The notes under the pieces were generated by a model. The model worked only from the letters and a program-made list of their open reading frames with translations. It had not been told where the DNA came from and did no database searches. A program made the translations under genes and the position numbers. From positions 1-55,456 of the IMG/VR virus record IMGVR_UViG_3300025674_000051: 55,456 nt of DNA; one strand, written 5' to 3'. Source of the DNA: a virus. Below are positions 29,925 to 54,524 of the stretch, piece by piece (the first letter of the stretch is position 1; the number at the start of each line of letters is the position of its first letter).

Positions 29925-29953
29925 ATTATAACAAATATTTTTACATGTGTCAA
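29925..29953 (-). promoter_or_regulatory. Perfect sigma-70 consensus promoter
   Basis: TTGACA (29953-29948), exactly 17 bases, TATAAT (29930-29925). The leader to ATG 29904 is about 14-15 bases with AGGAA. This is the best promoter match in the window. Confidence 0.88.
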
Positions 29954-29976: not shown

Positions 29977-30351
29977 TTATTTATTTAACAAGTCTTTCAC
30001 CATTTGTTTAAGTTGATCTATTTCTTCCTGTTGTTCTTTGATAGCTTCGATTAAAAGAGGAACCATTTTTTCATACTTGACTGTTAAGTAATCTTCTCCT
30101 GACTTACTTCCAATGTCATCTCCTGACTGTTCATCGTATTTTCTATCAAACGGTGCATAAGTAACAGCTTGTGGTAATACTTTTTGAACTTGTTGTGCTA
30201 GTACACCCGCATCGTTAACTTTTATACTTGGATTAAATCCTAGTTCTTCTACTTCGTCAATCCAATCATAATGCACACCTTGTAGTTGTTTGACTTTATC
30301 AAGAGCATTTTCAATAGGACGAATATTTGTTTTCAATCTTTCATCCGATGA
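29977..30351 (-). other. Peptidase S74 (endosialidase-type) chaperone domain
   Basis: Residues 3803-3926 of the giant fibre. The signature is SSDERLKTNI, then LDKVKQLQGVHYDWID, GVLAQQVQKVLPQAV, YLTVKYEKMVPLLIEAIKEQ and the terminal coiled coil. In studied fibres this domain trimerises the stalk and then cuts itself off before the Ser. Confidence 0.88.
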
Positions 30352-36300: not shown

Positions 36301-39300
36301 GTTAACAGTGAATCTTGTAATGTTATGGTTGTTGTTAGCTGGTGTTGTTAAGAATGTAATTTGTGTGCCTAAGTTAAAATCGTCATACAACTCTATGTTG
36401 TCATTGTCAACAACTTTGACATAATAAACTTGATTGTTTAACAATCCGCCGATAGCAACATTCGCTAATGTGTCGTATGTTACAGGATCACCATTTGAGA
36501 ATCCATGAGCAGTAATAGCAATTCTACTATCAGTGTAATCAACTGCACCGCCTGCACCGTCAGAACCTGCTAAGAAGTTATGACTAATTGTATCATCAAA
36601 GTTAATATCGTTTGCATTTTGCACAGCAGTATTATCTTCAACAAAGTCAATACTTGAGCTACTTGCAACAAACAATTCTCCGCCTAATATGTTTACATAG
36701 GCTCTATCTTCAATTGCACTAATCTCAATTTGGAAGCCACTACCTGTGCCGCCTATGTCACTTGTATTAGCACCTAACAAGTCGCCAGCAACATATCCAG
36801 TACCGCCTCTAGTTAAGTCAACATCTGTAACAGCACCTGCTGTGACTGTAATGTTAGCTTTTGCACCTGTACCAGAACCTGAAATACTTGTCAATGAAAT
36901 ATTTTCGTAGATTAGACTTCCTGTAGTAGGTGTGTACAAGCTACCGCCAGTAATGTTTGCATTGTCTACACTAACTGCAATACCTTCTCGTGTTTCAGTA
37001 ACAGCACCTTGTGCGTTACCGTCTGCTGATGTAACAATGGTTCTAGCAGTACCACTTACTGCTTTTGTTGACTCATTGTCTCCTGTGTTCGTAATAGTAA
37101 AAGTAGTTGCACTAGGTACACTTAACACAAGACCGTTTTGATTATATGTTTCGTCTCCAGATACAATAACATTAACATTGTTATCAACATTTAAATTATG
37201 TGCGCCACTAGTTGTAATAGTTGCAATGTTTCCTGATCTTGCAACATTTGTCACAGTTGCACTTGTAAATGTATAAGTATCGTCACTATCAAGAATTAAG
37301 AACTGACTTGAGTTTGAGCTACGCAAGAAGTAGTTATCGATAATTTCACTGCTTAAACCTTTAGATGCAATATTTTCGCCAGAGTCTACACCGTTAATAA
37401 AAATGTTCCCTGCACTAACCTCCCACGGATCACCGGTGCTGTCATCAGTTTTATCCCATGCTTCTCCTTGTGTTGTAACAAGAATGTTAAGACTGTTTAA
37501 AAAATCACCTTTAGCATAACCGATAGCGCCTGTAACACCTGGTTGTGTAATAGTGTCACCGTCGCTTGCACTTACAGTACCAGACAGTGTAAGTTCTACC
37601 TGTTCATATTCTTCTGTACCAATGTCACCTGCTTTCAAGTCAACTGCTGGAATATCTTCGACTTGGTTTAGTCTTGATTGATATCCTTTGGTATTTGTGT
37701 TTGTAAACTGTCTAGTGGCAGGAATCAAGTCTGCGTTTAACTGTCCGTTAACATTGAGCTGTACAATAGCACCTGGAACAGCAGCCGAGCTAACTGTTTT
37801 GTCAATAAACCCACCTAGTCTGTTTGATAAGAAGCTTCTTACTGCAAGCTGTGTGCTAATACGAGTATCTTTTGCACCACCAATTTCGTTATCACCTAAG
37901 TTAACATCTGTTGAAATTTCTTCAATAGCAACATCACTAACACTCAATTTCAATGCATCAAGTTCGTCCACCTGCACTTTGTTTCTAAAGGTAATGTTAC
38001 CAGTTCTGTTAAACGCTGTAATAAAGTCACCAACTTTAAAGTCACCAAGTTCGTTTGTACCTGATGAGTAGCAACGTCCTGGCAGTTCTTCAAACTGTTC
38101 GTATTCTTCTCTAGTGTTACCGCCGTTCTGTGGTAATGCGTTATAATCTGTACCTGAACCTGCATATTCCCAAGTATGTGCAGATGAGTTAACAATACTT
38201 GGTCTATGGAACCAAAGTTGTTTCTCTGGCAAGTTTACTAGATTTGTGATACTACTACTACCGTCAGTTGCTGTTATTGAGAATGTAGCTGTACTTCTAT
38301 TTGTTACAGCACTAACTTCGTTAATACCAATACTTGTGTTTGGTGTATCACTGTGATCTTCTGTAATAGTACTTGTTGCATCAAATTGAATACGAAGAAC
38401 ACTTGATCCAACGGTCACTTGTTCAATACTAACTGTCAATTCTCTTTCAGCAGGAACCCATTTGCTAACAATTGCACTATTATTGCTTGCACCTGTTGTA
38501 CCTTGAATTGCTCTACCTGGAACAAAGTTATAACTTTCTGCTCCAGATTCTAAGATAAGTTTTTGGTATGTAGTATGCGAAGCTGTAACTTCTTCAACAA
38601 AGAATTCTATAATATTTGCTAGAAATTTATGAGTGCCTGTGTTACTAAAGTTGCTAAAGATTGTTGCGTCAAATTCACCACTATCGTCATTTGTTAGTGT
38701 AAATTCATTTTCGTCAATTAGTTTGATATAATATGTTTGTTCATTATTCAAACCACCAATTGTTGTATTTCCATTATTATCGTAGATAACTTTTTGTAAG
38801 TTTGTAAAGCCGTGACCTGTAATTGTAAAAATTCCAGTTGTTACATTAAGTGCTGTCGCTGCATCAAATGTAGTTTCGTCAGGTGTTGGAATAAAGTCTA
38901 GTGTTACATCGCCTTCACTACTCACATCGTTTGGATTTGGAATCGAATCTGGATCTCTAATAATGTCTGTGATGATATCAAATCTACTTTGCACAAAATC
39001 TTCAACTGCGGTAGTGATCTGTCCGTAACCTGTGATTTCTGTGTTTGAAAGAGTTGCTGCTTGCTGAATAGCCTTAATAGTTTGTAGCTCTTGACCTGAA
39101 ATTAAACTTCTAGAACTGTCTGCAATATTCGCTGTAAAATAACTCAAACCTGCGTTTCTTGAATATCTATTACCAGTGTCCCAAGTATCTTTTGCTACTG
39201 CTTCAACTATTAGTTTTGTATCACGCAAACATTTACTTTGATCATAGACAAAGTTATACCACATGCCTGCATCAATTTGTTCATTAATATATTTTGTAAC

Positions 39301-41757
39301 TCTTTGAGCAATATTAACTGCACCAGCTGAGTCAATTCCTAATGCATTGTTTGCATCTGCAACAAGAGCAGGTGATGGCCAAGATGTATCTGGTTCGCTT
39401 CTTACAATTTCGCCGCCGTCGTTATCAATGTGATCAACAACAACTTGTATAAGTGCTTCTGCTTGTGTGCTTGCTGCTGCACTACCTGCTGTGCCACTTG
39501 TATCTTGTGTTTCTGTGTTTCCACTTGAAACTGTGACAGTATTTTCTAATACAACATCACCTATAACATCTTTCAGTCTACCGTATGCAGCAATTGTTTC
39601 TTCTTTTTTACCTGTACCGTACTGTGCAGTTGTACCAACAAAATATTGGAATGCAGCATCTCTAGTAAGCAAGTTACCACCGTATGTTAAATCGTAGATA
39701 AGTGCATCAATGATTAAAGAAATATCTTTTTCGCATTTAGTTGCATTGTATGTAAAATCTGTTGCAAATGGTGATGTACCTGCAGCAACTTGAACTGCAA
39801 TCCATGCTGTAACTTCTTTTTTGATAAACTGTTTGTTTGCAAGCAATTGTTGCACAGCATTAGCATATCCTGCATCACTAGCATTACCTGTACCAGAACT
39901 TGGTGTTGGATATACAAATGTATCTGCAATTTCTCCAGGAACATCGTTACTACTACCATTTGTAATAATGTCAATTACTTCGTCCCATAGTGCATTTGCT
40001 CTACTAATAGCAGTTGCATCAGTAAGTGTTGCAGCGGTAAATGCCTTTGCTTGTGTAAATGATTCTACAGTTTGATCTCTTTGATCATTTATAACAGTGT
40101 CACTTGTTCCATTGTAATATTTTATTGCACTTGATATAGTTCTGTAATTACTATTAAACATGATATCATAGCGTATAGAATCTAGAATAAATCTTACATC
40201 TCTTCTACATTTTTCTTCATTGTATGTAAAGCCTGCCCATATATTGCTTGTTGCTGCGCTAACTTGACCATTAATCCAAGTAATTGTATCATTAGCAATA
40301 GCATCTCGTTTACTCAAAAGAACATCGTATGCTTCTTTATAACCCGGTTCTCTAAATCTTAAAACAAATTCTTCAACTGGTGCTGTTCTGTTTAATCCCA
40401 CCATTGTAATTGTTTGCTTGCCTTCAAATGCACCAGTACTTGTGACAAATGCACGGTCAAATTCAAACGCCTTCGGTGAATAGCCAGATGAACGCAAAGC
40501 ATATAAACCAAAGTTTGTAGCAGAGTTGGTAATCGAACAATATCCGCCTGATTGTGTATAAACACCGTTAAGTAGGAAGATTTGGAAACAGCTAACGATC
40601 TGTGCATAAGCATCGTTTAGTAGTCGCCAACCTGTACCACCAAACGAAAGCATGGTATATGCGTTAGCAACCATTGATTTACCTTGTTCAGGTATAGCAC
40701 CAATAACTGGATTCTCAGCTTCAATATTATATTGGGGCACATTGGGGCTGTTAACCAATGCACCGTCAATCTTAGCACCACTACCGCCTAAGAACGAAAT
40801 AATCGAACAGTTCTGTGTATACGGAGATGTAACAATAGTTGGTTTTGTATTTGGCAAGTTTGTATATTCAGCACGGTCGGTTACATCAGTAGCATCAGGA
40901 TCGTCAAATGTTGTAGCATAGTCCCATGTGATCAACGGAACAAAGTTAGCGTCAACACCATCTCTAAAGGTAAATTCACCAAAATAACATGCGTTTCTTA
41001 CACGCAACATGTCAAGGTTAGCATTAGCAGGACGAATAATACATCCACGCAAACCGTCACCTTTGATAACAACGTTATCTGGAACAATAATCGGGTTGTC
41101 TTCTGTGTAATCACCAACCGCAACTTTAATATTAACACGAGTATTTGTTAGTGTACCGTCTACATTATAAACAATAGCACTTGCAAGTTGACAGGCTCTC
41201 TTAACAGTTTTAACCGGAGCAGTTTGTCCATCGTTAGTGTCGTCGCCTTTTTCGGCACTAACATAGATAACATTACCACCAAACAAGTCTGAATCAACAA
41301 ATTCTAATTGTCCTGTAGCATCTGTTCTAAGTAATTGACCTTTTGTACCAGCAGTCAGAGGCAAAGTAAGATTGTAGCTAGTAGGAAGGGTATCTGGTGC
41401 TTTTAAACTAATTCCGTCTTCACCAGAAGCAGTAAGTTCTCTAAATGTAATGCTAGTTGCATTTTCCATGTCAATTGCTTCTTTAATGTTCATACCTTCG
41501 TTGGTAATTGTCATCTTTTCTGAGTCATTGACTGTAAATGAAATTTCAGCTGATGTACTGTCGCCAGCATCATCTACTTTAATTTCACTGTTATTTTCAA
41601 AAATTCTTTTTGTAATATCTTGAACTGTGTTGTCATCACGCAGTAGGAATACTTTACCGTCTGCTGTGTTAATTGCCAATTCACCTGATTCAAGTTGAGA
41701 AACTATAGGCTGTTTTCCAGCCACACTACTACGCTTGTGTCTAATCTTTGTTGCCAT
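29977..41757 (-). CDS. Giant tail fibre protein with C-terminal S74 intramolecular chaperone
   Basis: A 3926-residue protein. The N-terminus (TKIRHKRSSVAGKQPIVSQL, then ESGELAINTADGKVFLLRDD) is the virion-anchoring start common in marine T4-like fibres. Next comes a pectate-lyase-like beta-helix (NVIYVSAEKGDDTNDGQTAP, VVIKGDGLRGCIIRP), then three KC-x-(R/K)-D repeats, long beta-rich passages, at least five ATTIN-GG-AT repeats, GSGLT-LNAS-L-GTV-R repeats and a collar of NTAVG repeats. The last 124 residues (from 3803) begin SSDERLKTNIRPIENALDKV and form a peptidase S74 chaperone, whose Ser is the self-cleavage residue in known members; a coiled coil ends the protein. It has an AGGAGG Shine-Dalgarno and a late promoter. 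Confidence 0.92.
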   Translation of the reverse strand: MATKIRHKRSSVAGKQPIVSQLESGELAINTADGKVFLLRDDNTVQDITKRIFENNSEIKVDDAGDSTSAEISFTVNDSEKMTITNEGMNIKEAIDMENATSITFRELTASGEDGISLKAPDTLPTSYNLTLPLTAGTKGQLLRTDATGQLEFVDSDLFGGNVIYVSAEKGDDTNDGQTAPVKTVKRACQLASAIVYNVDGTLTNTRVNIKVAVGDYTEDNPIIVPDNVVIKGDGLRGCIIRPANANLDMLRVRNACYFGEFTFRDGVDANFVPLITWDYATTFDDPDATDVTDRAEYTNLPNTKPTIVTSPYTQNCSIISFLGGSGAKIDGALVNSPNVPQYNIEAENPVIGAIPEQGKSMVANAYTMLSFGGTGWRLLNDAYAQIVSCFQIFLLNGVYTQSGGYCSITNSATNFGLYALRSSGYSPKAFEFDRAFVTSTGAFEGKQTITMVGLNRTAPVEEFVLRFREPGYKEAYDVLLSKRDAIANDTITWINGQVSAATSNIWAGFTYNEEKCRRDVRFILDSIRYDIMFNSNYRTISSAIKYYNGTSDTVINDQRDQTVESFTQAKAFTAATLTDATAISRANALWDEVIDIITNGSSNDVPGEIADTFVYPTPSSGTGNASDAGYANAVQQLLANKQFIKKEVTAWIAVQVAAGTSPFATDFTYNATKCEKDISLIIDALIYDLTYGGNLLTRDAAFQYFVGTTAQYGTGKKEETIAAYGRLKDVIGDVVLENTVTVSSGNTETQDTSGTAGSAAASTQAEALIQVVVDHIDNDGGEIVRSEPDTSWPSPALVADANNALGIDSAGAVNIAQRVTKYINEQIDAGMWYNFVYDQSKCLRDTKLIVEAVAKDTWDTGNRYSRNAGLSYFTANIADSSRSLISGQELQTIKAIQQAATLSNTEITGYGQITTAVEDFVQSRFDIITDIIRDPDSIPNPNDVSSEGDVTLDFIPTPDETTFDAATALNVTTGIFTITGHGFTNLQKVIYDNNGNTTIGGLNNEQTYYIKLIDENEFTLTNDDSGEFDATIFSNFSNTGTHKFLANIIEFFVEEVTASHTTYQKLILESGAESYNFVPGRAIQGTTGASNNSAIVSKWVPAERELTVSIEQVTVGSSVLRIQFDATSTITEDHSDTPNTSIGINEVSAVTNRSTATFSITATDGSSSITNLVNLPEKQLWFHRPSIVNSSAHTWEYAGSGTDYNALPQNGGNTREEYEQFEELPGRCYSSGTNELGDFKVGDFITAFNRTGNITFRNKVQVDELDALKLSVSDVAIEEISTDVNLGDNEIGGAKDTRISTQLAVRSFLSNRLGGFIDKTVSSAAVPGAIVQLNVNGQLNADLIPATRQFTNTNTKGYQSRLNQVEDIPAVDLKAGDIGTEEYEQVELTLSGTVSASDGDTITQPGVTGAIGYAKGDFLNSLNILVTTQGEAWDKTDDSTGDPWEVSAGNIFINGVDSGENIASKGLSSEIIDNYFLRSSNSSQFLILDSDDTYTFTSATVTNVARSGNIATITTSGAHNLNVDNNVNVIVSGDETYNQNGLVLSVPSATTFTITNTGDNESTKAVSGTARTIVTSADGNAQGAVTETREGIAVSVDNANITGGSLYTPTTGSLIYENISLTSISGSGTGAKANITVTAGAVTDVDLTRGGTGYVAGDLLGANTSDIGGTGSGFQIEISAIEDRAYVNILGGELFVASSSSIDFVEDNTAVQNANDINFDDTISHNFLAGSDGAGGAVDYTDSRIAITAHGFSNGDPVTYDTLANVAIGGLLNNQVYYVKVVDNDNIELYDDFNLGTQITFLTTPANNNHNITRFTVNLTDNSMVVANHGFTTGDAIRMVSLDDGSTSNVLPDVNGVEIASGSRFFVGSVTTNSFTIHALRSDALSSINGLVTNARNIDANGVGSARIIRNNVQVNAIVNTSSRLKANWNTLAVTNIDAENIISGTISPSRLAASGVANSESALFGDSSYKNVVQTIKVAATTDNPITLTGLNTAGEYYGDPVNIGIANTDLNVGGTFSTLGVSKFLQTQFDVNSDGSGEVFIKDGVIDAGTLDSLDSAYFLNPNNLTSLVPVSRGGTNIGTYAIGDLIYAQSAGSLNTLNIGRANTFLKSNGTTPEWGTALDLAEGLDVGSAKLSSSSDALGQVYNNNVTTLELGGDAENVKIGKSSDSRAITSFALDYEATASRDVVVNLASINVDTSDATGNGEAALVFSDTTGIKYGMIVTGSGSIPANTTVTGVTDTEVFISANTTGTVLTSTTLTFTYTPETLGVRVGDTIIISGSNVTNLDGTWPVSGATADATSFTIRTDNLVTAANVVVQGTISKDNTMVIRNRDVVFGSAVTGASPVSAVIKGESGLGTNIGGGDITIQGGISTGNATSGSVIIKTGEVGTSGAVAQTSTTRLTIDTNGKAAFTGEVEVNDTISTTETTVGLLDDTATTINMGGDATTVEIGAATGTTTVHNNVDIDLDLNVDGGDITTNATTFNIVNANATTVNIGGDATTVSIGAATGTTTVNNDLTVSGDLTVNGTTTTINTTELSVDDKNIELGAVASPTDTTADGGGITLKGATDKTIIWVNSTDSWTSSENFELASGKQFRIDGNDILSSTTIGVTVVNSSLQQLGTINTGVWQGTTIDPTYGGTGVNNGSKTITLGGNFTHTGAHTLGLTTTGNTSVTLPTSGTLARTETGLNQFASTTSAQLAGVLSDETGTGVFVLSTSPEFTTGIEAASTTMALFDDTATTINFGGAATAIDIGATTGTTSVNNNLDIDLDLNVDGGDITTNQTTFNLLNTNATTINAFGNATALDLGATTGTTSINNDLDVDGDLNVDGGDITTNTATSNIMNANATTINFGGGASAINIGAATSSVNFADDIDVTGNVTIDGTLTIPAIDGVPIGGTTPSTGAFTTLTASGLTTVTNTTSATSTGTGAVVITGGLGVGGAVYADNFNGSIAASNIDSGTLDDARIAVSNVTQHQLSITGTGALNAGSITSGFGNINIGTSTFTGNGSGLTDLNASQLTTGTVQGARLGGNQTMAGVKTFSDTSDASNSTSGAVRVGGGLGVTKKIYTGDGFYGNGANITALNATQLTSGTVPDGRLPTSQAGKTFTSDITVNGHRIGRGNQGEATNLVFGEGGSIGSGAQFNTGIGDATFAGGLTGDRNTALGYNALNAVTTVSNNTAVGANTMEQRTNAGEGNTAVGKSSQSNSTAGNYNTSVGIEALELVTGDNNTVIGAFSGDTLTTGSNNILIGYNVETDANTTSNQMVIGNSSNNSLKIPGVNLTVSTTTFNFTGTTGYSGVGTNLTALNASNLSSGTVPDGRIAASSVTQHQGSITGTGALNSGSITSGFGNIDIGSSNLTATGTVSLGATSFNNNNITGVTDLTLDDQIISKDDVDTYLQFHAADQWRVVTGGGERLEVNNTTTTVQNNLSVTGTITGDGASVTNLNATNLASGTVANARIDGTYSNLTGTGALDAGSITSNFGDINIGTSTFTGNGSGLTNVSADTLDGIDSLSFLRSDADDTATGQITFQKDGEVFKIVAPTTTNSPYIGWYQGATRRAYMQFVNGGTLRLASDQHGSRVDIGNGTNGLTYTDGTTWTVWHSGNTGSGSGLDADTIDGIDSGSFIRSDADDTASATYDYTSTSDDIIDFTGNSTSDNRGIAFNNRTALSADYNDGYLRLNNASEFTNGVYTPGNLRVDGVTYVDATRGITNVTGDYGTIQTSGSGINGYEGYSIDGRIVLMHDGGSNTYLYNDVDNEAHFLTVRNSYFRLYYNGSTRLTCNNTTVDVAASFTATGEVTAYSSDERLKTNIRPIENALDKVKQLQGVHYDWIDEVEELGFNPSIKVNDAGVLAQQVQKVLPQAVTYAPFDRKYDEQSGDDIGSKSGEDYLTVKYEKMVPLLIEAIKEQQEEIDQLKQMVKDLLNK
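29978..29985 (-). promoter_or_regulatory. Weak candidate late box AATAAATA
   Basis: AATAAATA overlaps the last codons and stop of the fibre gene (AAT AAA TAA). It could give late expression of the 674 aa gene in addition to its early promoter. AT-rich coding ends produce this string easily. Confidence 0.3.
32040..32330 (-). repeat. NTAxG repeats in the giant fibre
   Basis: Repeated units such as NTALGYNALNAVTTVSNNT, NTAVGANTMEQRTNAGEGNT and NTAVGKSSQSNSTAGNYNTS, then NTVIGAFSG and NILIGYN. This hexapeptide-like collar is common in trimeric phage fibres and bacterial adhesin heads. Confidence 0.75.
33150..34480 (-). repeat. ATTIN-GG-AT beta repeats in the giant fibre
   Basis: At least five imperfect units of the form (A/D)TATTIN-x-GG-x-AT-x3-IGA-x-TGTT-x-V-NN, often followed by LDIDLDLNVDGGDITTN. 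The repeats can also be seen in the DNA around 33230-33560 and 34180-34460. Confidence 0.8.
39150..40240 (-). repeat. Three KC-x-(R/K)-D repeats in the N-terminal part of the giant fibre
   Basis: Units KCRRDVRFILDSIRYDIMF, KCEKDISLIIDALIYDLTY and KCLRDTKLIVEAVAKDTWD, each followed by about 130 residues of helical sequence. The same family occurs ten times in the 3101 aa fibre. Confidence 0.8.
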
Positions 41758-41857: not shown

Positions 41858-44800
41858 TTAGAACTCGCCGCCATCTATGGTATCTGTCCAAATTGGTGTG
41901 TCATCGCCTGAATCTGTGACAGTTAGTATTTGGAACGATGTGCTAATATCGCTGCTGCCTGCTGCATCAGTAACTAGTAGTTGATTAGATCCATTACCGT
42001 ATACAATACCATTTGTAACAAAATTACTGCGTCCAGTACCACCATACTGTACTTCTAAGTCAGTTGTAAGTGTTAGTGTTCCCACTTCTGCATTTGTAAC
42101 AGTAATTTTGTTGTTAATACTATCGATGATCTCTGTACTATCATCTGCAAAAACACTTCCTCTAAATCCAGATGCATCCAAAATACCAGTTACAGTTAAG
42201 TCTTCGTCAACCTGTAAGCTAGTTTTAACAGTTGCTAATGTTTCACTTAATCTAAATTTTTCAGTAACAGCACCTGCAGACATTGTGCTAAACACCATGT
42301 CAAAGTCTTCTTGTGTACCTGTTATATCTTGTACAATACTATCAATTTGTCCACCTGTTTCAAAGTTGGCATTTGTTGTTTCAACTTCAAATTTCATACC
42401 AACACCAACACCTGCAACTGGTGTACCGCTTACACTATGATGAGCCAGTGTTACTGGATACACAATGTCATCTGCTGCACTATCTGGTGCATTTGAAACA
42501 ATTTTGAAATCATCAGGTGTTTCGATTGTGCCTGCTTTAATCAATAACTTATCAGTGTACAAATCTGTTAATTGCAGTGTTCCAGTTGTATCACCACCAA
42601 TAAATCCTTGTACAAATACATTTTCAGCAACACCTACACCACCTGCAATTGTTAGTGCACCTGTGTCGAATCTGTAACTAGTGCTGGTGTTTGCAATATC
42701 AACTTGTACTGTAGAATCAATATCTAAATCAGTGTTTGTTAACAGCATTCTTTGAGTGCCATTTGTGAAGAATTCTAATTGATCTTCATCCGAACCTGGT
42801 GTTGTTTCAGGTCTTATAAATGTGTCTTGGTCAACATCTTTTACGCCACCTAGTGATCCCCAGTTACTGCCATCGTATCCTTCAAACAAATTATCTTCAG
42901 AATTGAAGCGTATTTGACCAGTTGCTGCTGCTGTTCTTTCAGCAGTAGTACCAACTGGCAATTGAATGCTTGCAGTACTGTCAAAAATGAATATTTCATT
43001 GTTGAATGTGATTGTACCAGTACTTGCACCTATTGTAATATTATCAGCTGCACCAAATGCTTCAATAGTTTGAATGTTTTCATTTAACAATGTAAATGTA
43101 CCACTATCAACTCTTGTGCTAATACTTGTGCCGTTAACTTCAAGATTGTTTTCAGCAATAATATTTCGTTGTGCAGTGATATCCAATCCTGCAAACAGTG
43201 ATTTTTCTAAGCCAATACCGCCTACAACTTGCAATGCACCTTCTGTAGGAGCAGTTGCTTCTGATGTGTTTGCAATGCTTACAAACGGAGTCCCACCAAT
43301 TGCAATCTCTTCACTGCCGTTAGTTGTTTTGACATTCAAGTAAGGAGATGATGCTTGTCTAATTGTAAAAGATTCTGCTGTATTATCAGGAATATTAAAG
43401 TCTGCATCACCTGAAACATTTAATGTATCTAGTACAGCATCGTCACCAAATGTTAGTGAACCGTCAACTTGCATGTCTCCTGTAACAAAAACATTGCCGT
43501 CAATACCCACACCACCTGATACAACCAAGGCACCTGTTGTTGCACTTGTTGATTCAGTGGTATTTTGAATTTTTACCACTGGATTTGCACCAAACAGCAC
43601 TTCTTCTGTGCCGTCAGTTGTATTCAATTTAAAATAACTGTTTGCACCTTCTAGTATTTCAAATGCACCTGTAGTAGAATCATATACATTGTATGTTGCA
43701 TTTGCATTGACTGTAAGTGTGTCTACAACACTATCATTTGTACCAATAGTAACACTACCGTCAACATCAAGAGCTCCATTAATTAATGTGTCATTATAAA
43801 CTCTTAAATCACCTCTTACATTGAGATTTTTCTCAATGCCCATACCGCCTTCTATCACCAGTAAACCGCTATCTGGGCTGTTTGATTGAGTAGTGCCTTC
43901 AAATGTTATACTTGTTATAGTATCGTCTAAACGGAATGCTGTTGTGCTTAGATTCATTCTTTCTAAGCCATCAGTAACAAAACTTAGTTCATTTTCGTTT
44001 GAACCTGGAGAGCTTTCTGCTTCGATGTATGTGTTACCATCAACATCTCTAACACCGCCTAGTGTGTTCCAAGCAATACCATCGTAGCCTTCAAAAATAC
44101 CCAAGTCTGTGTTGAAGCGAATATAACCTTCTTCTGGTACACTTCCTCTTTCACCTGTTGTACCGGTTGGTATTTTCATATTATAGCTACTAGTAAATCT
44201 AATGTAATCATTGTTAACAATAAAGTTACCAGGTACAATACCCGAACTACCAAGTTGAATTTCTGTAGCATCACCGAACGCATTAACTGTTCCGGCAGTG
44301 TCATTAAACAAGCTCAAGTTTGCACTATTAGTGCTAACAATACTACCTTCAAAGAAAATATCTCCGCCGACGTTTAAGTTTTTACCAACACCTAAACCGC
44401 CGCCTACAACTAAAGAACCGTTGGTTTTATCTGTACTTTGTGATGTATTTAGAATTCTTATAACAGGCACATTACCAAATGCAACTGTTTCTTGTGCATC
44501 TCTAGTATCTATAGTAATGTAATCTTCAGTGTTCATTGTAATGTTGAACGCTTGTTGTAACTCGTCAGGTATAGTAATATCAACATCACCAACAATAGTT
44601 GTATTTCCACCTATATCTAGTGATCCTCCAACTATAACATCATGCCTAATTTCTGTGGTGCCCACTCCGTTAGCACCAATCGTTATAGAAGTTGCGCCGC
44701 CTGCAAAGTTTACAAAACTCGCATTGTCGTTGACAAGATTAACTATAGTAGATGTAGTGGTAATGTCGCCGCCGTCTACTGCAATATCCTGTTCAAATAC

Positions 44801-47800
44801 AACATCAGCTTCAACAGTTCCGCCTGTTAGCTTATTTAAATACCTATTTGTCAAGTAGTTTACAACTGCTGTTTGAGTTGGAACAGTATTTTGGTCTGCT
44901 GCACCTGTGCTTGCTGTTAGGTCACTGTTGTTACTAACTTCTTTAAGTTCCACACCTACAGGAATATTAAATCGTCTGAATGGTCCAATGGCAGCAATAC
45001 CTGATAGATTGATTTCTTCAGCGTTAAGTGTAATAGATCCTGTAAGTGCATTAACATTAAAATAGTTACCAACTTTAAAGTTACCAATTTGGTCAACAGT
45101 ACCGCCGGCAAAAACTTTACCATTATTAGTTTCAACAAACTCGTTTGCTGCTATAGGAGATCCACCAAAGAATGGAAGAGCATTATATGTAATACCTGCG
45201 CCTACATATTCAAATGCATGACCCGAAGTACTAACTGTACTTACTCGTTGCATACTGCCAAGAGTACCCTCTTGTACAGCCACTATACCTGGGAATAATG
45301 TAAGGTCTGCAACTCCACCGTATTGTGCATTTAACAATCTAATACTTTCGTCTTCGATAGCTTGTAAGTCATTAAGTATAGTTGTTCTTTGTGTTTTTAC
45401 AAGAGATGTAAGTCCTAAGTTGTCATAGTCGTGGTCAATTTCATATGGAAGATATGTAGTGCCGCCTAGTAGTATAACATCAGCAATCTTGTTTACCATA
45501 TTATTTGCATATGCTCCAGAAGTTGCACTTCCTCCTATTGTTCCATAAGTTTGCGTTTCAGTTGTACCAGATGATGCTGTAACTTTTAGGTTTTGAGCAA
45601 CACTTTCTAACACTTCACCTAGGTGTCTGTAAGATAGTTCTGTTATCGATTCTTGTCCTGCAATGACTGCATTACTGTAATAGGCTTCTGCTGCTCTACG
45701 TGTTTGCTTGTTACCGCCAAAGAGTGTATCATAAACTGCTGCATCTACTATGTATGCAGTATCTCTTTCACATTTTTCAACATTGTAGCTAAAAGAAATA
45801 ATATTATCGGTAATAAACGTAATAGTGTCTGATTTTATATTTTCAATATTATTTTCTAAACTATTACATACTTCATTTAATCCAAATTCGATCCAATCTG
45901 TATCTGGATTGCTATTTGATGGAGTAGTTTCTAAACCTGTTGAATCGCTAATAGCAGTAATAACAATATCAAATAATGCTCCTACTTCTTCACTTTCTGC
46001 AGATGAACCATATAATCCTGTTAGGTTTTGTGGTTCAGGATTTCCTGTTTCAGGAACAACTGCTGCACCTTGTACGACTTGTATTGCTACATCACGTAGA
46101 TGTTCAAGTGCATCTTGAGTTTCTCCTGTTTGTCCATATATTTGTATTACTCCATCGTCAAAGTAAGATCTAGTGGCTATTAGTACACTTCTGTTGCCTA
46201 AATAAAGAACATCGTGAGTAACAGCATCAATCAAATATCCTGTATCTCTTCTGCACTTTTCTTCACTATAACTGAACCCATTTAGTACTGTGTTGATGTA
46301 GTTAATGTTATCGTCTAATATTGCAGTTCTGTTAGTTTCTATTAAGGTTTTGCTTGTTAAAAGATTAGAAGTATTCCATGTATCGTCTAATGCTTCGTCG
46401 GCTGGCAATAACTCTAAAGTATTTGCTTTTACTACATCTCTAATAATATTAGCAAGTTCTGTTGATTTATTTGCTTCTTCACTTGATACAAGTCCAGCAG
46501 ATGTATCTTGCCCCGAGTATGCTTCAAGTAAAACATCATATGTGATAAGACCAAGTTGTTCCATAGCATTGCCTGTAGCAGTCCTTTGGTCTGCTGGAAG
46601 TTGACTTGTAGTACCAACAAAATATGCTTTTGCTGCTTCTTTTGTTGCAAGATTTGTGTTATAGTTTAGGTCATGACTTATAGCATCGATAATATAACCT
46701 AGGTCTCTACGGCATGTAGCTTCATTATATACCAATGTTGGTTCATTAGCTCTAATCCATAATATAACTTCATCTTCAATAAGTTTTCTATTGTTTTGTA
46801 CTTGTATTCTAGCATTTGTATGATCAATATTATTACCAGTTGATGTCCATGTTAATGCATCAGCATTTGCAGATCCATTGGTTAAAATATCTATTACTTC
46901 ATCAAATGCTGCACTTACTGCTGTGATACTCGGACTGTCTGATAATACAGCTAATGTTTGTGTTTTTAATCTTGTAACTGCGGCTATAGTTTCCACCAAC
47001 TGATCCGAAATAACAACACTTGATTGAGCTCTACGATATGATAACCCATTTAATACAGCCCAATAGTTTGTTCCTAATGTAAGATCTTTTATTATACCAT
47101 CTAAAATTAATCCACTATCTCTTCTGCATTTTTCGCTGTCATAGATAAAATATTGGTTGTTAATATGTAATACTGTTTCTTCTATTAAAAAGTTTTTATT
47201 ATCTTGTAAAAGTCTTGCTGTATCTATTCTTTCTTGACTTGCAGGAGTTGGTGACGGATAAGTTGTACCTTCGCTAGGTTCAACATCGTATTCTACAATG
47301 TTAAAAAAGTTTTCAAAACCTTCTGTTATACGAGTTGTAGCTGTAGCATTTGTAGTAACATATGACAATGCAGTATCTCTAACATATCTCATTGCCATTA
47401 TAGTTGCAGGGTTTTGATTTACATTAAAGTAGTTTGCTGTTGCTCTTTTGTATGCTTGAGCAGCAACTATCATATTATGATTAGTTCCTAATCTTGCATC
47501 TCTTAAAACAGCTTCTAATATTAACTCAACATCTCTTTGACACTTATCTTGGTCGTAAGTAAAAGCTGGATAGTTTGCAAGAACAAAATCTGTTGTTTCT
47601 CTACCTAATGATTGTCTTGAACCATATACTGTTATACCTGCAACTTCTACATCATTTGATGCCCAAGTTAAATCTGGTAACACTTGAGTTTCAAGATTGT
47701 CTAGATCTCCATCATTAAGAACATCTATTATTATTTGCACTAAAACGGAAGCTAAGTTTGCTTGTGTACCTGATGCTGGAGCACCAGTAGTATCTTGAGT

Positions 47801-50800
47801 TTCATCATTTCCATTAGATCTAACAACTGCTCCTTCAAGTATAATTTGACTTACAACTGTTTGCAATCTTTCATATGCGGCTATTGTTGCAGTCACTTCT
47901 GCACTGTCAGTTCCTAACTGGTTTACTGTACCTACAAAATAAGATTGAGCACATATTCGAGTTGCAGAATTGCCGCCATACATAATATCATATGCTAGTG
48001 CATCAACAATATATCCTACATCTCTTTTACATTTTCTTTCATTGTAGCCATTACCATTATCGTAAACGCTAGGATAGTTTACATTAACATATGCTGCTAT
48101 TTCTTCTTGGATAAACTTTCTATTTGCTACAAGTTGTCCAACTGCATTTGGTAGATTTGAACTAGCACCAGTTGGTGTTGGATAACTTAATGTATCTGCG
48201 TTAGTGATGTTTACATCGATTTCTTCTAATACATCAACTTTGATTGCAGGCATATTATCTTGCCAGTTATTAAATGCGTATATAAGATTTTGATCTGTAA
48301 TGTGAGCTATACTTGGCTCTGTTAGTGTTGGTAAAGCCGAAGTACTACCTGCTTCAAGAACGTCTATTACAATTTGTACTAATGACCCTACTTCGTCAAC
48401 TTCAGACGATGATGCTGGATTTGTAGTTACTTGCTGACCTGAATATGTTTCTAATATTATGTTTTGCATAATATTAATCAATTCGTTATAAGCATCAATA
48501 GTTGCTGTTACTTCGTCTGTGCTTCCTAGTTGACTTACTGTTCCAACAAAGTAAGCATCGGCTGCTCTACGTGTAGCAAAGTTGCCTCCGTATTGTACGT
48601 CAAAACACACTGCATCTGTAATAAACTTTACATCTCTTTCACATGTTGCACTATCGTATGTTAAACTTGGGTAATAAGTTGCAATCCATGTTGTTAACTC
48701 AGAAGCAATATAATCTCTGTTAAGTTGTAGTAGTTCTCTAGCGTATCTTTTGTTTACATCAACACCAGGATCTGTATATGTTATTGCATCTACTACATTA
48801 GCATCTTGACTACTATCAGCATTAGAAATAATATCAATAATTTCATCAAATGCAGCTTCACTTCTAGTTACTGCTGTGTTGCTTAATGTCATATATGTAT
48901 TTGAGGCAATATCTTTCATGTATTGATATGTGCGAATAGTTTGTTGGAACTGGCTGCTTAAAACATATGCACTTGGTGCCCTTTGATAACTCAATCCTGT
49001 TGTTACTGCATTATAGTTAGTATTAAGTATAACATCCCACGCAACACTATCTACAACATATCCAATATCTCTTTCACATTTATCTTTATTAAAGTTTAAG
49101 CCTGCAAAAATATCCAAAAACTCTGTAAACAAGTTATTAACACGAGTTACTGCTGTTGGTGATCCTGAAACAGCACTAATAGCTAAAATACTATCTCTGG
49201 TATTTTCAAATGTTGCTTTTGAAACTTCATATTGAATATCTGACGAAACTTTACTAGCATTTGCTCTCGCATAACTTAGTGCAGCAAATATTGTTCTAAC
49301 ATTACTTCCTGTTGCAAGATCGTAACCTATAGCTTCAACTAATAGTTCTGTGTCTCTTTCACATTTTGCTTGATTGTATGACAGATTAGAAAACTGATTA
49401 GAAATATAGTTTGTTAGTTCGTTAACTATAAAATCTTTATTTGCAACAATGTTATCTGCTGCTGCTCTAGTACCTTCGTCTACTAGTGTATTAGTTCCTA
49501 AATCAATGTCAGGTGCAGCAGTGCTATCTCCTTGATTTAGATAAGACACTATTTCTGCAAAACGTTCTATTATAAAATATCTTGCATCTTCGTTAAGTGG
49601 GTCACTGTCAGGTATACGAGCAAGCATTTCGTCTCTAGCTGCTTCAATGCCATATATAGTTGGAGCAAGTTGTGCTGCAATAACTTTATTTGCTCTTGCA
49701 CGTAAATAGCTTCTACCAGCTGCTAACGATTGATAGTTTGTTCCTAATGCTAAATCTCCAACTACAGCATCTACAATACGTCTAACATCGCGTCTACATA
49801 CTGATTCGTTGTATATAAAAGGTTGTGTGGTAATATTAGTATTTGTTACATAGTATCCTTGTGAATCACCTTCAAAAGTTATTATACTACCAGTCTGAGG
49901 TATATCTCTTAATCCGTTTACAGTAATAACTTGATTAGTCACAAGATTAGCAGTAGCAGTTGCAATAACATCATAGCCGCCGCCAACTAGACTAACATTT
50001 GGCACTCTATCATAACCACTACCTTGATCTGTAATAGTTATAGCGGTAATTTGTCCTGTTGTAGCGTCTAACGATGCTGTGCCTGTAGCTGTAACACCAT
50101 TTATATCACCTAGTGGCGGATCTATTACAACAGTCGGTGCAGTAGTATAGTTAGCACCAGTATTGTTCATAGTAATACTACCCACACTTGAATAATAATC
50201 TTGGATTGGTCTAGCGGTGGTAAAGACTTTGTCAAATACACCGTCTGCAATAATAGCATATGTACCAAAGTCACTAACTGAGTTTGAAATACTTAGATAA
50301 CCACCTTTGGTTGCTTGGAAGCCAACTCTTGTAAAAACAGAGAAGCAGCTAACAATCTGTGTATAACCTTCGTTTGTAATATGGAACCCAATACCACCTT
50401 GTGCAATTTGTGTAAATGCATCAGCAACAAAAGATTTGACTAAGCTGTCAGGATGATATTGATTGCCATCAACTAGCATACCGTTGCCGCCACCTGTGGT
50501 ATTAACACGTTTACCTAAAGGAACATTTGGATCATTTTCAATAGGTCTAGCGCCAGGGTTTACACCTTCAATTTGAACAGTTTCAAAAGGTATAAATTCA
50601 GTACCGTCATTAAGCCAAGGACCGTTCATGTTAGTGCAGTTTTGTACATATGGTGAAACAGTTACAAGTGCATTTGGTTTAATCTCAGCGCACCAACCTG
50701 GATCACGCAATGCTCTAAATGTAAGTTGGAATAGATAACATGCATTATCCATAAAAAATATTGTTTGTGTATTATTTTTTGGATATATTTGTGTATTACG

Positions 50801-51163
50801 TAAACTATCACCTCTAACTGTTTGACGAGCTTTAAGAGTAATAGGATTTTCTTCATAGTAATCTCCAGGAGCAACTTGTATAGTTGCACCAGCAGGAGCA
50901 GCATCAACTGCTGCTTTTACAGTTCTTTTTGCCTGTCCTGGTCCAGCACCTGTTCCTGTATTAGAATCATTACCTTCTAAGCTAACGTAGTATACAAGTT
51001 GGTTTGTTGCGCCTGGACTATTTCCAGTAACATTTAAGTTTCCATCAATCCTTACTTCTTTACCTGCTAACGGTTTTATGTCAATGCTACCATCAGCATT
51101 TAATACAAAAGACTGATCTTTAACTTTTCTTTCGTGTAATATCTGCTTCTTTAAATACTTCAT
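41858..51163 (-). CDS. Giant tail fibre-like protein with ten KC-x-RD repeats
   Basis: A 3101-residue protein. An N-terminal segment (YLKKQILHERKVKDQSFVLN, then GSIDIKPLAGKEVRIDGNLN) precedes a pectate-lyase-like beta-helix (YYVSLEGNDSNTGTGAGPGQ, APGDYYEENPITL, TVRGDSLRNTQIYP) paralogous to that of the 3926 aa fibre. Ten helical repeats of 120-190 residues follow, each opening with Y-(N/D)-x3-C-x-RD-x3-(I/L)-x-(D/E)-A. The C-terminal third alternates beta modules with motifs such as LVVSGGVGIDGNVFV and GYIRFNTDLGIFEGYDG. No S74 domain is present. It overlaps the 110 aa gene by one base (TAATG), so it belongs to the operon from the late box at 52989-52996. It is probably a fibre partner of the 3926 aa protein. 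Confidence 0.88.
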   Translation of the reverse strand: MKYLKKQILHERKVKDQSFVLNADGSIDIKPLAGKEVRIDGNLNVTGNSPGATNQLVYYVSLEGNDSNTGTGAGPGQAKRTVKAAVDAAPAGATIQVAPGDYYEENPITLKARQTVRGDSLRNTQIYPKNNTQTIFFMDNACYLFQLTFRALRDPGWCAEIKPNALVTVSPYVQNCTNMNGPWLNDGTEFIPFETVQIEGVNPGARPIENDPNVPLGKRVNTTGGGNGMLVDGNQYHPDSLVKSFVADAFTQIAQGGIGFHITNEGYTQIVSCFSVFTRVGFQATKGGYLSISNSVSDFGTYAIIADGVFDKVFTTARPIQDYYSSVGSITMNNTGANYTTAPTVVIDPPLGDINGVTATGTASLDATTGQITAITITDQGSGYDRVPNVSLVGGGYDVIATATANLVTNQVITVNGLRDIPQTGSIITFEGDSQGYYVTNTNITTQPFIYNESVCRRDVRRIVDAVVGDLALGTNYQSLAAGRSYLRARANKVIAAQLAPTIYGIEAARDEMLARIPDSDPLNEDARYFIIERFAEIVSYLNQGDSTAAPDIDLGTNTLVDEGTRAAADNIVANKDFIVNELTNYISNQFSNLSYNQAKCERDTELLVEAIGYDLATGSNVRTIFAALSYARANASKVSSDIQYEVSKATFENTRDSILAISAVSGSPTAVTRVNNLFTEFLDIFAGLNFNKDKCERDIGYVVDSVAWDVILNTNYNAVTTGLSYQRAPSAYVLSSQFQQTIRTYQYMKDIASNTYMTLSNTAVTRSEAAFDEIIDIISNADSSQDANVVDAITYTDPGVDVNKRYARELLQLNRDYIASELTTWIATYYPSLTYDSATCERDVKFITDAVCFDVQYGGNFATRRAADAYFVGTVSQLGSTDEVTATIDAYNELINIMQNIILETYSGQQVTTNPASSSEVDEVGSLVQIVIDVLEAGSTSALPTLTEPSIAHITDQNLIYAFNNWQDNMPAIKVDVLEEIDVNITNADTLSYPTPTGASSNLPNAVGQLVANRKFIQEEIAAYVNVNYPSVYDNGNGYNERKCKRDVGYIVDALAYDIMYGGNSATRICAQSYFVGTVNQLGTDSAEVTATIAAYERLQTVVSQIILEGAVVRSNGNDETQDTTGAPASGTQANLASVLVQIIIDVLNDGDLDNLETQVLPDLTWASNDVEVAGITVYGSRQSLGRETTDFVLANYPAFTYDQDKCQRDVELILEAVLRDARLGTNHNMIVAAQAYKRATANYFNVNQNPATIMAMRYVRDTALSYVTTNATATTRITEGFENFFNIVEYDVEPSEGTTYPSPTPASQERIDTARLLQDNKNFLIEETVLHINNQYFIYDSEKCRRDSGLILDGIIKDLTLGTNYWAVLNGLSYRRAQSSVVISDQLVETIAAVTRLKTQTLAVLSDSPSITAVSAAFDEVIDILTNGSANADALTWTSTGNNIDHTNARIQVQNNRKLIEDEVILWIRANEPTLVYNEATCRRDLGYIIDAISHDLNYNTNLATKEAAKAYFVGTTSQLPADQRTATGNAMEQLGLITYDVLLEAYSGQDTSAGLVSSEEANKSTELANIIRDVVKANTLELLPADEALDDTWNTSNLLTSKTLIETNRTAILDDNINYINTVLNGFSYSEEKCRRDTGYLIDAVTHDVLYLGNRSVLIATRSYFDDGVIQIYGQTGETQDALEHLRDVAIQVVQGAAVVPETGNPEPQNLTGLYGSSAESEEVGALFDIVITAISDSTGLETTPSNSNPDTDWIEFGLNEVCNSLENNIENIKSDTITFITDNIISFSYNVEKCERDTAYIVDAAVYDTLFGGNKQTRRAAEAYYSNAVIAGQESITELSYRHLGEVLESVAQNLKVTASSGTTETQTYGTIGGSATSGAYANNMVNKIADVILLGGTTYLPYEIDHDYDNLGLTSLVKTQRTTILNDLQAIEDESIRLLNAQYGGVADLTLFPGIVAVQEGTLGSMQRVSTVSTSGHAFEYVGAGITYNALPFFGGSPIAANEFVETNNGKVFAGGTVDQIGNFKVGNYFNVNALTGSITLNAEEINLSGIAAIGPFRRFNIPVGVELKEVSNNSDLTASTGAADQNTVPTQTAVVNYLTNRYLNKLTGGTVEADVVFEQDIAVDGGDITTTSTIVNLVNDNASFVNFAGGATSITIGANGVGTTEIRHDVIVGGSLDIGGNTTIVGDVDITIPDELQQAFNITMNTEDYITIDTRDAQETVAFGNVPVIRILNTSQSTDKTNGSLVVGGGLGVGKNLNVGGDIFFEGSIVSTNSANLSLFNDTAGTVNAFGDATEIQLGSSGIVPGNFIVNNDYIRFTSSYNMKIPTGTTGERGSVPEEGYIRFNTDLGIFEGYDGIAWNTLGGVRDVDGNTYIEAESSPGSNENELSFVTDGLERMNLSTTAFRLDDTITSITFEGTTQSNSPDSGLLVIEGGMGIEKNLNVRGDLRVYNDTLINGALDVDGSVTIGTNDSVVDTLTVNANATYNVYDSTTGAFEILEGANSYFKLNTTDGTEEVLFGANPVVKIQNTTESTSATTGALVVSGGVGIDGNVFVTGDMQVDGSLTFGDDAVLDTLNVSGDADFNIPDNTAESFTIRQASSPYLNVKTTNGSEEIAIGGTPFVSIANTSEATAPTEGALQVVGGIGLEKSLFAGLDITAQRNIIAENNLEVNGTSISTRVDSGTFTLLNENIQTIEAFGAADNITIGASTGTITFNNEIFIFDSTASIQLPVGTTAERTAAATGQIRFNSEDNLFEGYDGSNWGSLGGVKDVDQDTFIRPETTPGSDEDQLEFFTNGTQRMLLTNTDLDIDSTVQVDIANTSTSYRFDTGALTIAGGVGVAENVFVQGFIGGDTTGTLQLTDLYTDKLLIKAGTIETPDDFKIVSNAPDSAADDIVYPVTLAHHSVSGTPVAGVGVGMKFEVETTNANFETGGQIDSIVQDITGTQEDFDMVFSTMSAGAVTEKFRLSETLATVKTSLQVDEDLTVTGILDASGFRGSVFADDSTEIIDSINNKITVTNAEVGTLTLTTDLEVQYGGTGRSNFVTNGIVYGNGSNQLLVTDAAGSSDISTSFQILTVTDSGDDTPIWTDTIDGGEF
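45700..49850 (-). repeat. Ten cysteine-containing KC-x-RD helical repeats
   Basis: The repeat openings lie near 49790, 49360, 49070, 48640, 48030, 47540, 47120, 46710, 46250 and 45770. Examples are ESVCRRDVRRIVDAVVGD, QAKCERDTELLVEAIGYD and VEKCERDTAYIVDAAVYD. Each unit keeps one Cys, an Arg-Asp pair and a later x-G-x-N-x5-A-x3-Y motif. Confidence 0.88.
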
Positions 51164-52551: not shown

Positions 52552-52905
52552 TTAGATAGCAGTTAATCTAAGTAGCGATTCAGTTGAGTCGTCTTCTACA
52601 GTCCATGTATAACGATTGTTGTCATAATCTACCGCTGTTCTATTGAAAAGTTTTTTAACTGCAATAGCACCGCCGCCTGCGCCGATTCCAATAAGCTGTG
52701 CTTCGTTGTCAGCACTTGGTGCAGCTTGTACTAGTCTGCATACTGCTGTTGTAGATCCTGCATCGTTTGAACAGTTAAACTTATTTGTGCCACGTTGTGA
52801 TAAAATATAACCTTCAATTAATGATGTACTATAAAATCTGATTGGTATTTTTGGTGTTGCTCCTCCGGTTACACCGAAGTATCTTTTATTTACTGGACGT
52901 CCCAT
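52552..52905 (-). CDS. Conserved structural-type protein, 117 aa
   Basis: MGRPVNKRYFGVTGG is a start found on a small conserved protein of T4-like marine phages. The body is beta-rich with Cys at two positions (FNCSNDAGSTTAVCRLVQAA) and a glycine patch GIGAGGGAIAVKK, ending YTWTVEDDSTESLLRLTAI. Its function is unknown to me; the adjacent fibre operon suggests a virion component. It has an AAAGGAG Shine-Dalgarno and a structured leader of about 80 bases from a late box. It heads the fibre operon. Confidence 0.7.
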   Translation of the reverse strand: MGRPVNKRYFGVTGGATPKIPIRFYSTSLIEGYILSQRGTNKFNCSNDAGSTTAVCRLVQAAPSADNEAQLIGIGAGGGAIAVKKLFNRTAVDYDNNRYTWTVEDDSTESLLRLTAI

Positions 52906-52996
52906 TGTTTTTTCTCCTTTGTTGACGTTCTAAGTCTACGCGGTGGGTACCGCATAAGTCCTCAAAGAGGTTCTCCTCTTGACATAAGTATTTATC
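52906..52996 (-). promoter_or_regulatory. Late promoter and structured leader of the fibre operon
   Basis: GATAAATAC at 52996-52988 is followed by two small hairpins (AAGAGG-AGAA-CCTCTT and GCGGT-ACCC-ACCGC) and then AAAGGAG before ATG 52905. The second and third hairpin arms are separated by only a few bases. An ATG three bases after the box opens a seven-codon frame that ends at TGA. Confidence 0.7.
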
Positions 52997-53026: not shown

Positions 53027-53056
53027 AAAAAAAGGCCTGCTAAAATATAGCAGACC
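53027..53056 (-). terminator. Rho-independent terminator of the small RNA
   Basis: A 9-bp stem GGTCTGCTA/TAGCAGGCC (one G-U pair) with a 5-base loop is followed by seven T on the minus strand. Confidence 0.92.
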
Positions 53057-53082
53057 TTTCTCTAATAATATGATAGGTTGGA

Positions 53083-53139
53083 TTAAGGATTACCAACAAT
53101 CGCCTTTGTAGATCCTTCCATAAAAGCGAAGCCTAGCAT
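53083..53139 (-). CDS. Possible 18-residue microprotein inside the small RNA
   Basis: The frame reads MLGFAFMEGSTKAIVGNP and stop. The composition looks protein-like, and the same frame stays open for ten codons upstream of the ATG (back to TGA) without another start codon. A weak GGAAG lies about 10 bases before ATG. No homologue is known to me, and chance is possible. Confidence 0.3.
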   Translation of the reverse strand: MLGFAFMEGSTKAIVGNP

Positions 53140-53279
53140 CGGATAGTTACTTCCAAAAACACATCTTCAAGTCTCCTTGCTCATGCGCTGTCACTACAAC
53201 TACTAGCCAAGTTACTGCCTCTACCAAGCAGCGTTTCCTTGCACTATCTAACTCAGACCGTCGTCTTTGTTATGTTTAT

Positions 53280-53308
53280 AATATAGCAAAAGAATACACA
53301 GAGGTCAA
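53280..53308 (-). promoter_or_regulatory. Sigma-70-type promoter of the small RNA
   Basis: TTGACC (53308-53303), 17-base spacer, TATATT (53285-53280). It lies just after the stop of the oxygenase-like gene and points into the gene-free region. Confidence 0.72.
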
Positions 53309-53316
53309 CCACTTTT

Positions 53317-53883
53317 TTATTTTTTTTCTATTAAATCTATTGCAACACTAATTCTTTCATTATCAGTTTTGTTTATAGTTGTTGAATGTAATAACCAGGC
53401 TGGAAAAAATACAATCTGTCCTGGTATTGGTTTTATTTTGTATATACTTCCTTGATCAATCCATCTACTTGCATCTATTGCTGGATTAGGACTATAAAGA
53501 GCAAGATCTCCATCTTCGCCATTAGTTTGCACATAGTAAACACAGGATATGTCAGCATCTCTGTGATTGTGAGGTGTTATTACTTCTCCTGGTAACGTTT
53601 TGGTTATCCAAGCAGTGTCTATCTCAAAATTTAAAATCTCACTTTGCACTTCATTTAGGTACTTTGATAAATGTTTTTGCATAACTGATTTAAAAAACTC
53701 AAAATCTCCATGCTCAAAAAAGTTATCATACAAGTGTGTAATCTGAACATCGCTTTCTAATCCAAAATCACTGCCTTTGATAAAATCAAAATCTGTGTTT
53801 AACATTGTTTGTTCTATTAAAGTTTGTTCCTCTATATCTACTTGAGATACATATATAGGAACTGAAAATATATTTTGTTTCAT
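53317..53883 (-). CDS. 2OG-Fe(II) oxygenase-like protein
   Basis: A 188-residue protein. The core reads TPHNHRDADISCVYYVQTNG (from residue 104), with H107 and D109 as the likely HxD iron ligands, then PIPGQIVFFPAWLLHSTTIN with H166 as the distal His, and R177 (NERISVAIDL) for 2-oxoglutarate. This is the pattern of the putative oxygenase family PF13759, frequent in marine T4-like phages. Targets are generally unknown; protein or nucleic-acid hydroxylation is possible. The start overlaps the SGNH-like gene by four bases (ATGA), so the two are cotranslated. It lies between gp23 and the small RNA. Confidence 0.85.
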   Translation of the reverse strand: MKQNIFSVPIYVSQVDIEEQTLIEQTMLNTDFDFIKGSDFGLESDVQITHLYDNFFEHGDFEFFKSVMQKHLSKYLNEVQSEILNFEIDTAWITKTLPGEVITPHNHRDADISCVYYVQTNGEDGDLALYSPNPAIDASRWIDQGSIYKIKPIPGQIVFFPAWLLHSTTINKTDNERISVAIDLIEKK

Positions 53884-54497: not shown

Positions 54498-54524
54498 AAA
54501 AAAAGGCCCCGTAGGGCCTTTTTT
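54498..54524. terminator. Bidirectional-looking terminator after gp23
   Basis: An 11-bp stem AAAAAAGGCCC/GGGCCTTTTTT with a 4-base loop lies 20 bases after the gp23 stop. T runs occur on both strands, and on the minus strand it ends gp23 transcription. Confidence 0.92.

What the first reader, a model, noticed from the sequence alone, without database searches (positions are those of the whole stretch)
53027..53308. Orphan small RNA between the capsid/accessory genes and the fibre operon
A 411-base gap holds a sigma-70-type promoter and a strong intrinsic terminator enclosing about 245 bases with no standard gene. It is transcribed on the same strand as its neighbours but as a separate unit, probably early. 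T4-like marine phages have few described small RNAs. It may regulate host or phage mRNAs.
Basis: partly seen in the sequence, partly recalled or inferred. Interest (0 to 1): 0.75.

Follow-up and report, generated by a model that had tools for sequence, protein, structure and literature searches.

The report
Stand-alone phage manA-type structured RNA
The gap holds a real, conserved, intricately folded phage RNA that belongs to a known but unexplained family (manA RNA), and its own promoter, its own terminator and its changing neighbours suggest that it is a free-standing RNA rather than the gene-control leader it has been filed as.

Summary
The 411-nt gap holds an extended -10 sigma-70 promoter (53308-53280), about 245 nt without a conserved ORF, and an intrinsic terminator (53059-53027).

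The RNA is not an orphan. It is a divergent manA RNA (Rfam RF01745): 42.8 bits, E 8.5e-10, 50 of 55 consensus pairs kept. This is below the curated cut-off (55.2), but a 74.5%-identical relative at the same place scores 59.0. Across 36 homologues 21 of 50 pairs change on both sides (0 of 500 shuffles reach this).

Rfam calls manA cis-regulatory. Here it is a separate unit. The terminator arm shows no antiterminator complementarity to the RNA (mean z 0.12, 35 loci). The downstream fibre operon has its own late-promoter motif (GATAAATA) and its own leader, a freshwater-2-type RNA. Elsewhere in phages manA lies between tRNA genes, 8-18 nt from a tRNA, 4 nt after a tmRNA, or between convergent genes.

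Best reading: a free-standing folded RNA acting in trans. That placement is well supported; its molecular job is inference. In many cyanophages manA still lies just upstream of a same-strand gene, so a cis role there is not excluded.

'Orphan' is wrong, and mRNA regulation by pairing is unsupported.

The parts
53280..53308 (-). Extended -10 sigma-70-type promoter TTGACC-17-TATATT with TGC before the -10 box
   Evidence: conserved at fixed distance in relatives
53067..53268 (-). Divergent manA RNA (RF01745 positions 1-192)
   Evidence: 42.8 bits, E 8.5e-10; 50 of 55 consensus pairs; covariation in 36 homologues
53028..53272 (-). Inferred primary transcript, about 245 nt (start inferred from the -10 box, end from the terminator)
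   Evidence: inference
53144..53196 (-). Span of a loop-loop interaction inside the RNA: UAGU (53196-53193) with ACUA (53147-53144); 100% paired in 36 sequences, one pair A-U to G-C in 7
53027..53062 (-). Intrinsic terminator hairpin and U-run, just after the manA fold
   Evidence: present with different sequences in relatives
52988..52996 (-). Late-promoter-like GATAAATAC of the downstream fibre operon
   Evidence: GATAAATA stands in front of several other minus-strand genes in the window
52903..52971 (-). freshwater-2-type RNA (RF02980), leader of the 117-aa gene
   Evidence: 48.6 bits, E 5.1e-8 (cut-off 49.9); syntenic relatives above cut-off
52552..52905 (-). 117-aa MGRPVNK... gene, first of the fibre operon; no Pfam or PHROGs match
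53317..53883 (-). Upstream neighbour: 2OG-Fe(II) oxygenase-like protein, 188 aa
54545..55456 (-). Gp23 major capsid protein (cut off by the window edge), followed by its own terminator-like hairpin at 54499-54524

Best explanation
A divergent member of the manA RNA family, made as its own transcript of about 245 nt from a host-type (probably early) promoter and ended by a constitutive intrinsic terminator. It folds into the manA architecture (a closing stem, several hairpins, a loop-loop contact) and most likely acts in trans as a folded free-standing RNA, by binding a protein, a ribonucleoprotein or another RNA, rather than by switching the next gene. Shown: the fold, family homology, conserved promoter and terminator, independence of any one downstream gene. 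Inferred: expression, timing, action in trans, and the binding partner, which is unknown.
For: Family: 42.8 bits, E 8.5e-10 in the window. Relatives at the same site score above the cut-off: L009 85.3, L034 63.7, L010 59.0, and L010 is 74.5% identical to the window over the whole length. 50 of 55 consensus pairs are kept. 21 of 50 pairs vary on both sides, 0 of 500 shuffles, and sliding the partners destroys the signal. Stand-alone unit: promoter at the RNA's 5' end in 6 of 10 clusters against 0.11 expected, and by eye in several isolated cyanophages and pelagiphages. A terminator hairpin was found at 35 loci, of varied sequence and with gaps of 11-83 nt, and its 5' arm has no more complementarity to the RNA than chance (mean z 0.12). 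The next operon has its own late motif and leader. Contexts where a 5' leader is impossible or unlikely: between tRNA-Pro and tRNA-Thr (L116), 8-18 nt from tRNA genes on the same strand in several further loci, 4 nt after a tmRNA (L159), and gp32 then manA then a convergent gene (L162, L164, L165, L168, L170, L173).
Against: No transcript data were available. In cyanophage-type loci the next gene is on the same strand in 43 of 47 clusters, often within 20-100 nt, and a terminator was detected in only 8 of 48, so a cis role there is open. The strong conservation of the fold is equally what a riboswitch aptamer would show. Metagenomic contigs may contain assembly errors, though the contexts recur.
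Confidence: 0.68

Rival explanations
1. A cis-acting riboswitch or attenuator: manA is the aptamer, the hairpin at 53059-53027 is its expression platform, and ligand binding decides whether polymerase reads on into the freshwater-2 leader and fibre operon.
For: Published view of manA as a riboswitch candidate in 5' UTRs (PMC2864571). The window RNA lies upstream of a same-strand operon, and most cyanophage copies lie 20-100 nt upstream of a same-strand gene.
Against: No antiterminator complementarity at 35 loci, and terminator sequence and spacing vary freely. The downstream operon has its own late motif and leader. The family also sits in tRNA arrays, after a tmRNA and in front of convergent genes.
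Confidence: 0.17
2. A base-pairing regulatory sRNA that silences host or phage mRNAs.
For: Own promoter and terminator, and a size typical of sRNAs.
Against: The RNA is held in a conserved, covarying fold almost throughout. The unpaired conserved parts are short and differ between manA clades. No target search was run.
Confidence: 0.1
3. A processing, stability or insulating element in longer transcripts (3' end of capsid, gp32 or tRNA transcripts) with no job as a free RNA.
For: Often directly after gp23 or gp32, or between tRNAs.
Against: Own promoter at its 5' end in the window and most relatives. The elaborate conserved fold is far more than a stability hairpin needs.
Confidence: 0.04
4. 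Chance: a promoter-like and a terminator-like sequence around a meaningless spacer.
For: Plain promoter and terminator scans of the region are at the level of shuffles.
Against: Conservation, covariation and family match.
Confidence: 0.01

Closest known systems
manA RNA motif, Rfam RF01745 (Weinberg et al. 2010, PMC2864571)
   Same: Full-length match, the same helices in the same order, GACG-loop 5' hairpin, 3' hairpin with GGUA...UCC, marine T4-like phages
   Different: Scores below the curated cut-off; own promoter and hard terminator; not a 5' leader of a metabolic gene; contexts in the clade contradict the cis-regulatory label
ROOL and GOLLD RNAs (PMC12286853)
   Same: Structured phage RNAs of unknown function, often near tRNA islands, free-standing
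   Different: Much larger (GOLLD often over 800 nt), unrelated sequence and fold; oligomer formation not tested for manA
freshwater-2 RNA, Rfam RF02980
   Same: Leader of the next gene in the window and relatives
   Different: A separate element behind the terminator and the late motif, not part of the manA unit
T4 stable RNAs C and D in the T4 tRNA cluster (own knowledge, not tested)
   Same: Small stable phage RNAs of unknown function among tRNAs
   Different: No sequence comparison made

Membership tests
manA RNA (RF01745) | Score at or above the curated gathering cut-off (55.2 bits) | tested here: not met
   42.8 bits, E 8.5e-10. Homology rests on L010 (59.0 bits, same locus, 74.5% identical to the window) and L009 and L034 (85.3, 63.7)
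manA RNA (RF01745) | Consensus secondary structure | tested here: met
   50 of 55 consensus pairs canonical in the window; 21 covarying pairs in 36 homologues, 0 of 500 shuffles
manA RNA (RF01745) | Loop-loop pseudoknot (marked 'pseudoknot?' by the authors) | tested here: inconclusive
   A 4-bp UAGU/ACUA contact is 100% paired with one covarying pair; that it is the pseudoknot drawn by the authors could not be checked
manA RNA (RF01745) | Located in the 5' UTR of the gene it controls (functional label cis-reg, not structural) | tested here: not met
   Terminator, late motif and a second leader lie between it and the next gene; other members between tRNAs or in front of convergent genes
Riboswitch | Ligand-dependent alternative structure | not testable with these tools
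   No antiterminator complementarity; ligand binding not testable
freshwater-2 RNA (RF02980), the leader at 52903-52971 | Score at or above the gathering cut-off (49.9) | tested here: not met
   48.6 bits, E 5.1e-8; seven syntenic relatives above the cut-off
Free-standing phage RNA | Own promoter and terminator, independent of any one neighbour gene | tested here: met
Free-standing phage RNA | Discrete transcript | not testable with these tools
   No RNA-seq available

The most novel reading that the evidence does not exclude
manA RNA as a whole is a free-standing phage RNA family, comparable in habit to ROOL and GOLLD, that has been misfiled as a cis-regulatory riboswitch candidate since 2010; the window shows a new divergent clade of it with an explicit promoter-RNA-terminator gene between the capsid and fibre operons.
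Probability: 0.55. Interest if true: 0.65.

Novelty: new variant of a known kind. Interest (0 to 1): 0.5.

Why it matters
manA has been a riboswitch candidate without a ligand. If it is a free-standing RNA, a search for a metabolite that controls the next gene asks the wrong question. The clade described here gives cleanly bounded copies with promoter and terminator, and isolated cyanophages that carry manA (P-HM2, P-SSM2, P-SSM3 and others) make it testable from infection RNA-seq. It also adds a clade that the current Rfam cut-off misses.

Tried and rejected
Rfam at the gathering threshold on the window: no hits, so a threshold-only search misses this. BLAST of the RNA against isolated phages: only short chance-level matches, the best a 25-nt promoter-like stretch in P-SSM3; three relatives used as queries gave one short match in pelagiphage Mosig or nothing. 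Protein-coding reading: no conserved ORF. tRNA or tmRNA in the window: none. Antiterminator: none. First column choice for the pseudoknot was off by one and was redone. Literature: nothing on freshwater-2 RNA in the held library; the P-HM2 infection RNA-seq paper does not mention the two ORFs annotated over manA in its main text, and supplements could not be read. No structure prediction or base-pairing target search was run.

Full report
What was checked. Simple scans of the region find no more promoter-like or terminator-like sites than shuffles do, so the single-sequence evidence is weak, except that the extended -10 form occurs only twice in the window with 0.08 expected and that the 246-nt RNA folds 4.6 standard deviations better than shuffles. 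The case rests on comparison.

Identity. The window has no Rfam hit at the curated cut-off, but a permissive search finds manA RNA (RF01745) over the full model at 53067-53268 (-), 42.8 bits, E 8.5e-10. Relatives at the same place, upstream of a homologous 117-aa gene, score above the cut-off: L009 85.3, L034 63.7, L010 59.0 bits. L010 is 74.5% identical to the window over the full length, so family membership follows by homology although the window itself falls short of the cut-off. Fifty of the 55 model pairs are canonical in the window. With this structure, which was derived from Rfam and not from these sequences, 36 homologues show 21 pairs with changes on both sides, 75 such cells and 90.9% of cells paired; 0 of 500 shuffles reach these values, and sliding the partners by one base drops pairing to about 42%. 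RNAalifold on its own finds 17 covarying pairs. A four-base loop-loop contact is paired in all 36, one pair changing from A-U to G-C in seven; the original authors drew an uncertain pseudoknot in manA (PMC2864571), and whether it is the same one could not be checked.

Unit structure. Pattern scans gave 59 distinct copies, mostly of two manA clades, in IMG/VR. Grouped at 95% they are 10 clusters; in 6 of them a TTGAC...TAnnnT promoter stands at the fixed place, 0.11 expected. A hairpin with a U-run follows at 35 loci. Its sequence and its distance (11-83 nt) vary, and its 5' arm pairs with the RNA no better than with shuffled RNA (mean z 0.12), which speaks against an attenuator. Behind the terminator lies GATAAATAC (52988-52996), a T4-type late-promoter motif (own knowledge of T4 late promoters) that in this window also stands in front of several other minus-strand genes, then a freshwater-2-type RNA (48.6 bits, cut-off 49.9; seven syntenic relatives above it), then the fibre operon. 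The order is therefore: upstream genes; promoter, manA, terminator; late motif, freshwater-2, fibre operon.

Other contexts. In L116 manA lies between tRNA-Pro and tRNA-Thr. In cyanophage-type loci a tRNA on the same strand lies 8-18 nt away in seven further loci, L195, L227, L257, L287, L289, L297 and L302; at the cluster level 4 of 48 are tRNA-adjacent, with a tRNA density of 1.6e-5 per base in the loci held. In L159 manA starts 4 nt after a tmRNA. In six loci (L162, L164, L165, L168, L170, L173) it faces a convergent gene, and in the two read in full (L165, L170) the gene before it looks like gp32; P-TIM68 also has an opposite-strand next gene. In five cyanophages (MED4-213, P-HM1, MbCM1, P-RSM4, S-SSM5) it follows gp23 directly, as in many window relatives, while the window's own gp23 is closest to jumbo phages Phosso, Vibrio 2.275.O and PA5oct. 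In P-HM2 it precedes gp32, in P-SSM2 it follows regA, and in P-SSM3 it follows pstS. A promoter-like TTGACA/TATAAT pair precedes it in several of these. Such shuffling of neighbours, with the RNA kept, is what a free-standing RNA gene shows.

Against. Among 48 cyanophage-type clusters, 43 of the 47 with a next gene have it on the same strand, often within 100 nt, and only 8 have a detected terminator. Phage genes are mostly co-directional, so this is weak evidence for a leader, but it leaves a cis role possible there. No transcript data could be consulted; the P-HM2 RNA-seq paper does not discuss this region in its main text.

Mechanism. Shown: fold, homology, conserved promoter and terminator, independence of neighbours. 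Inferred: early transcription by the host-type promoter, a stable product of about 245 nt, action in trans through the folded surface. The partner is unknown. ROOL and GOLLD, structured phage RNAs often found near tRNA islands and shown to form RNA-only cages (PMC12286853), are the nearest analogues in habit, not in sequence.

Verdict. Observation confirmed, interpretation partly supported. A new divergent variant of a known family, with evidence that the family's cis-regulatory label should be re-examined.

Noticed in passing
L159:2640-3200 (IMGVR_UViG_3300020416_000009): Phage-encoded permuted tmRNA (RF04321, 80.7 bits) whose tag reads by eye ANDNFAPVNYALAA, 4 nt upstream of manA RNA.
   Followed up: partly
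L159, L160, L162, L164, L168, L173 next to manA: A second conserved RNA-like element (CTTAATAARC...GGGACCACGGTYAGTYCC), before manA in some loci and after it in others, next to a tmRNA, a gp32-like gene or an hsp20-like gene; no Rfam match at E below 0.1 in L161, L162 and L164.
   Followed up: partly
NC_015280.1 PHM1_121, NC_015284.1 PHM2_011/012, NC_015289.1 SSSM5_127: Hypothetical proteins annotated on top of manA RNA, probably spurious genes.
   Followed up: no
L009:3475-3525 and L055:4465-4512: Glutamine riboswitch aptamers a few hundred bases or less upstream of manA RNA.
   Followed up: no
window 29925-29953 (-): The only other extended -10 sigma-70-type promoter of this strict form in the window, between the 3926-aa and 674-aa genes.
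   Followed up: no
window 29977-41757 and 41858-51163 (-): Two neighbouring giant fibre-like ORFs of 3926 and 3101 aa.
   Followed up: no
L195, L227, L257, L287, L302: tRNA-Asn 8-18 nt downstream of cyanophage-type manA RNA on the same strand.
   Followed up: partly
L314, L315, L316: Exact manA core pattern in two gammaproteobacterial MAG contigs and a Prochlorococcus genome contig; whether these are phage sequence was not checked.
   Followed up: no
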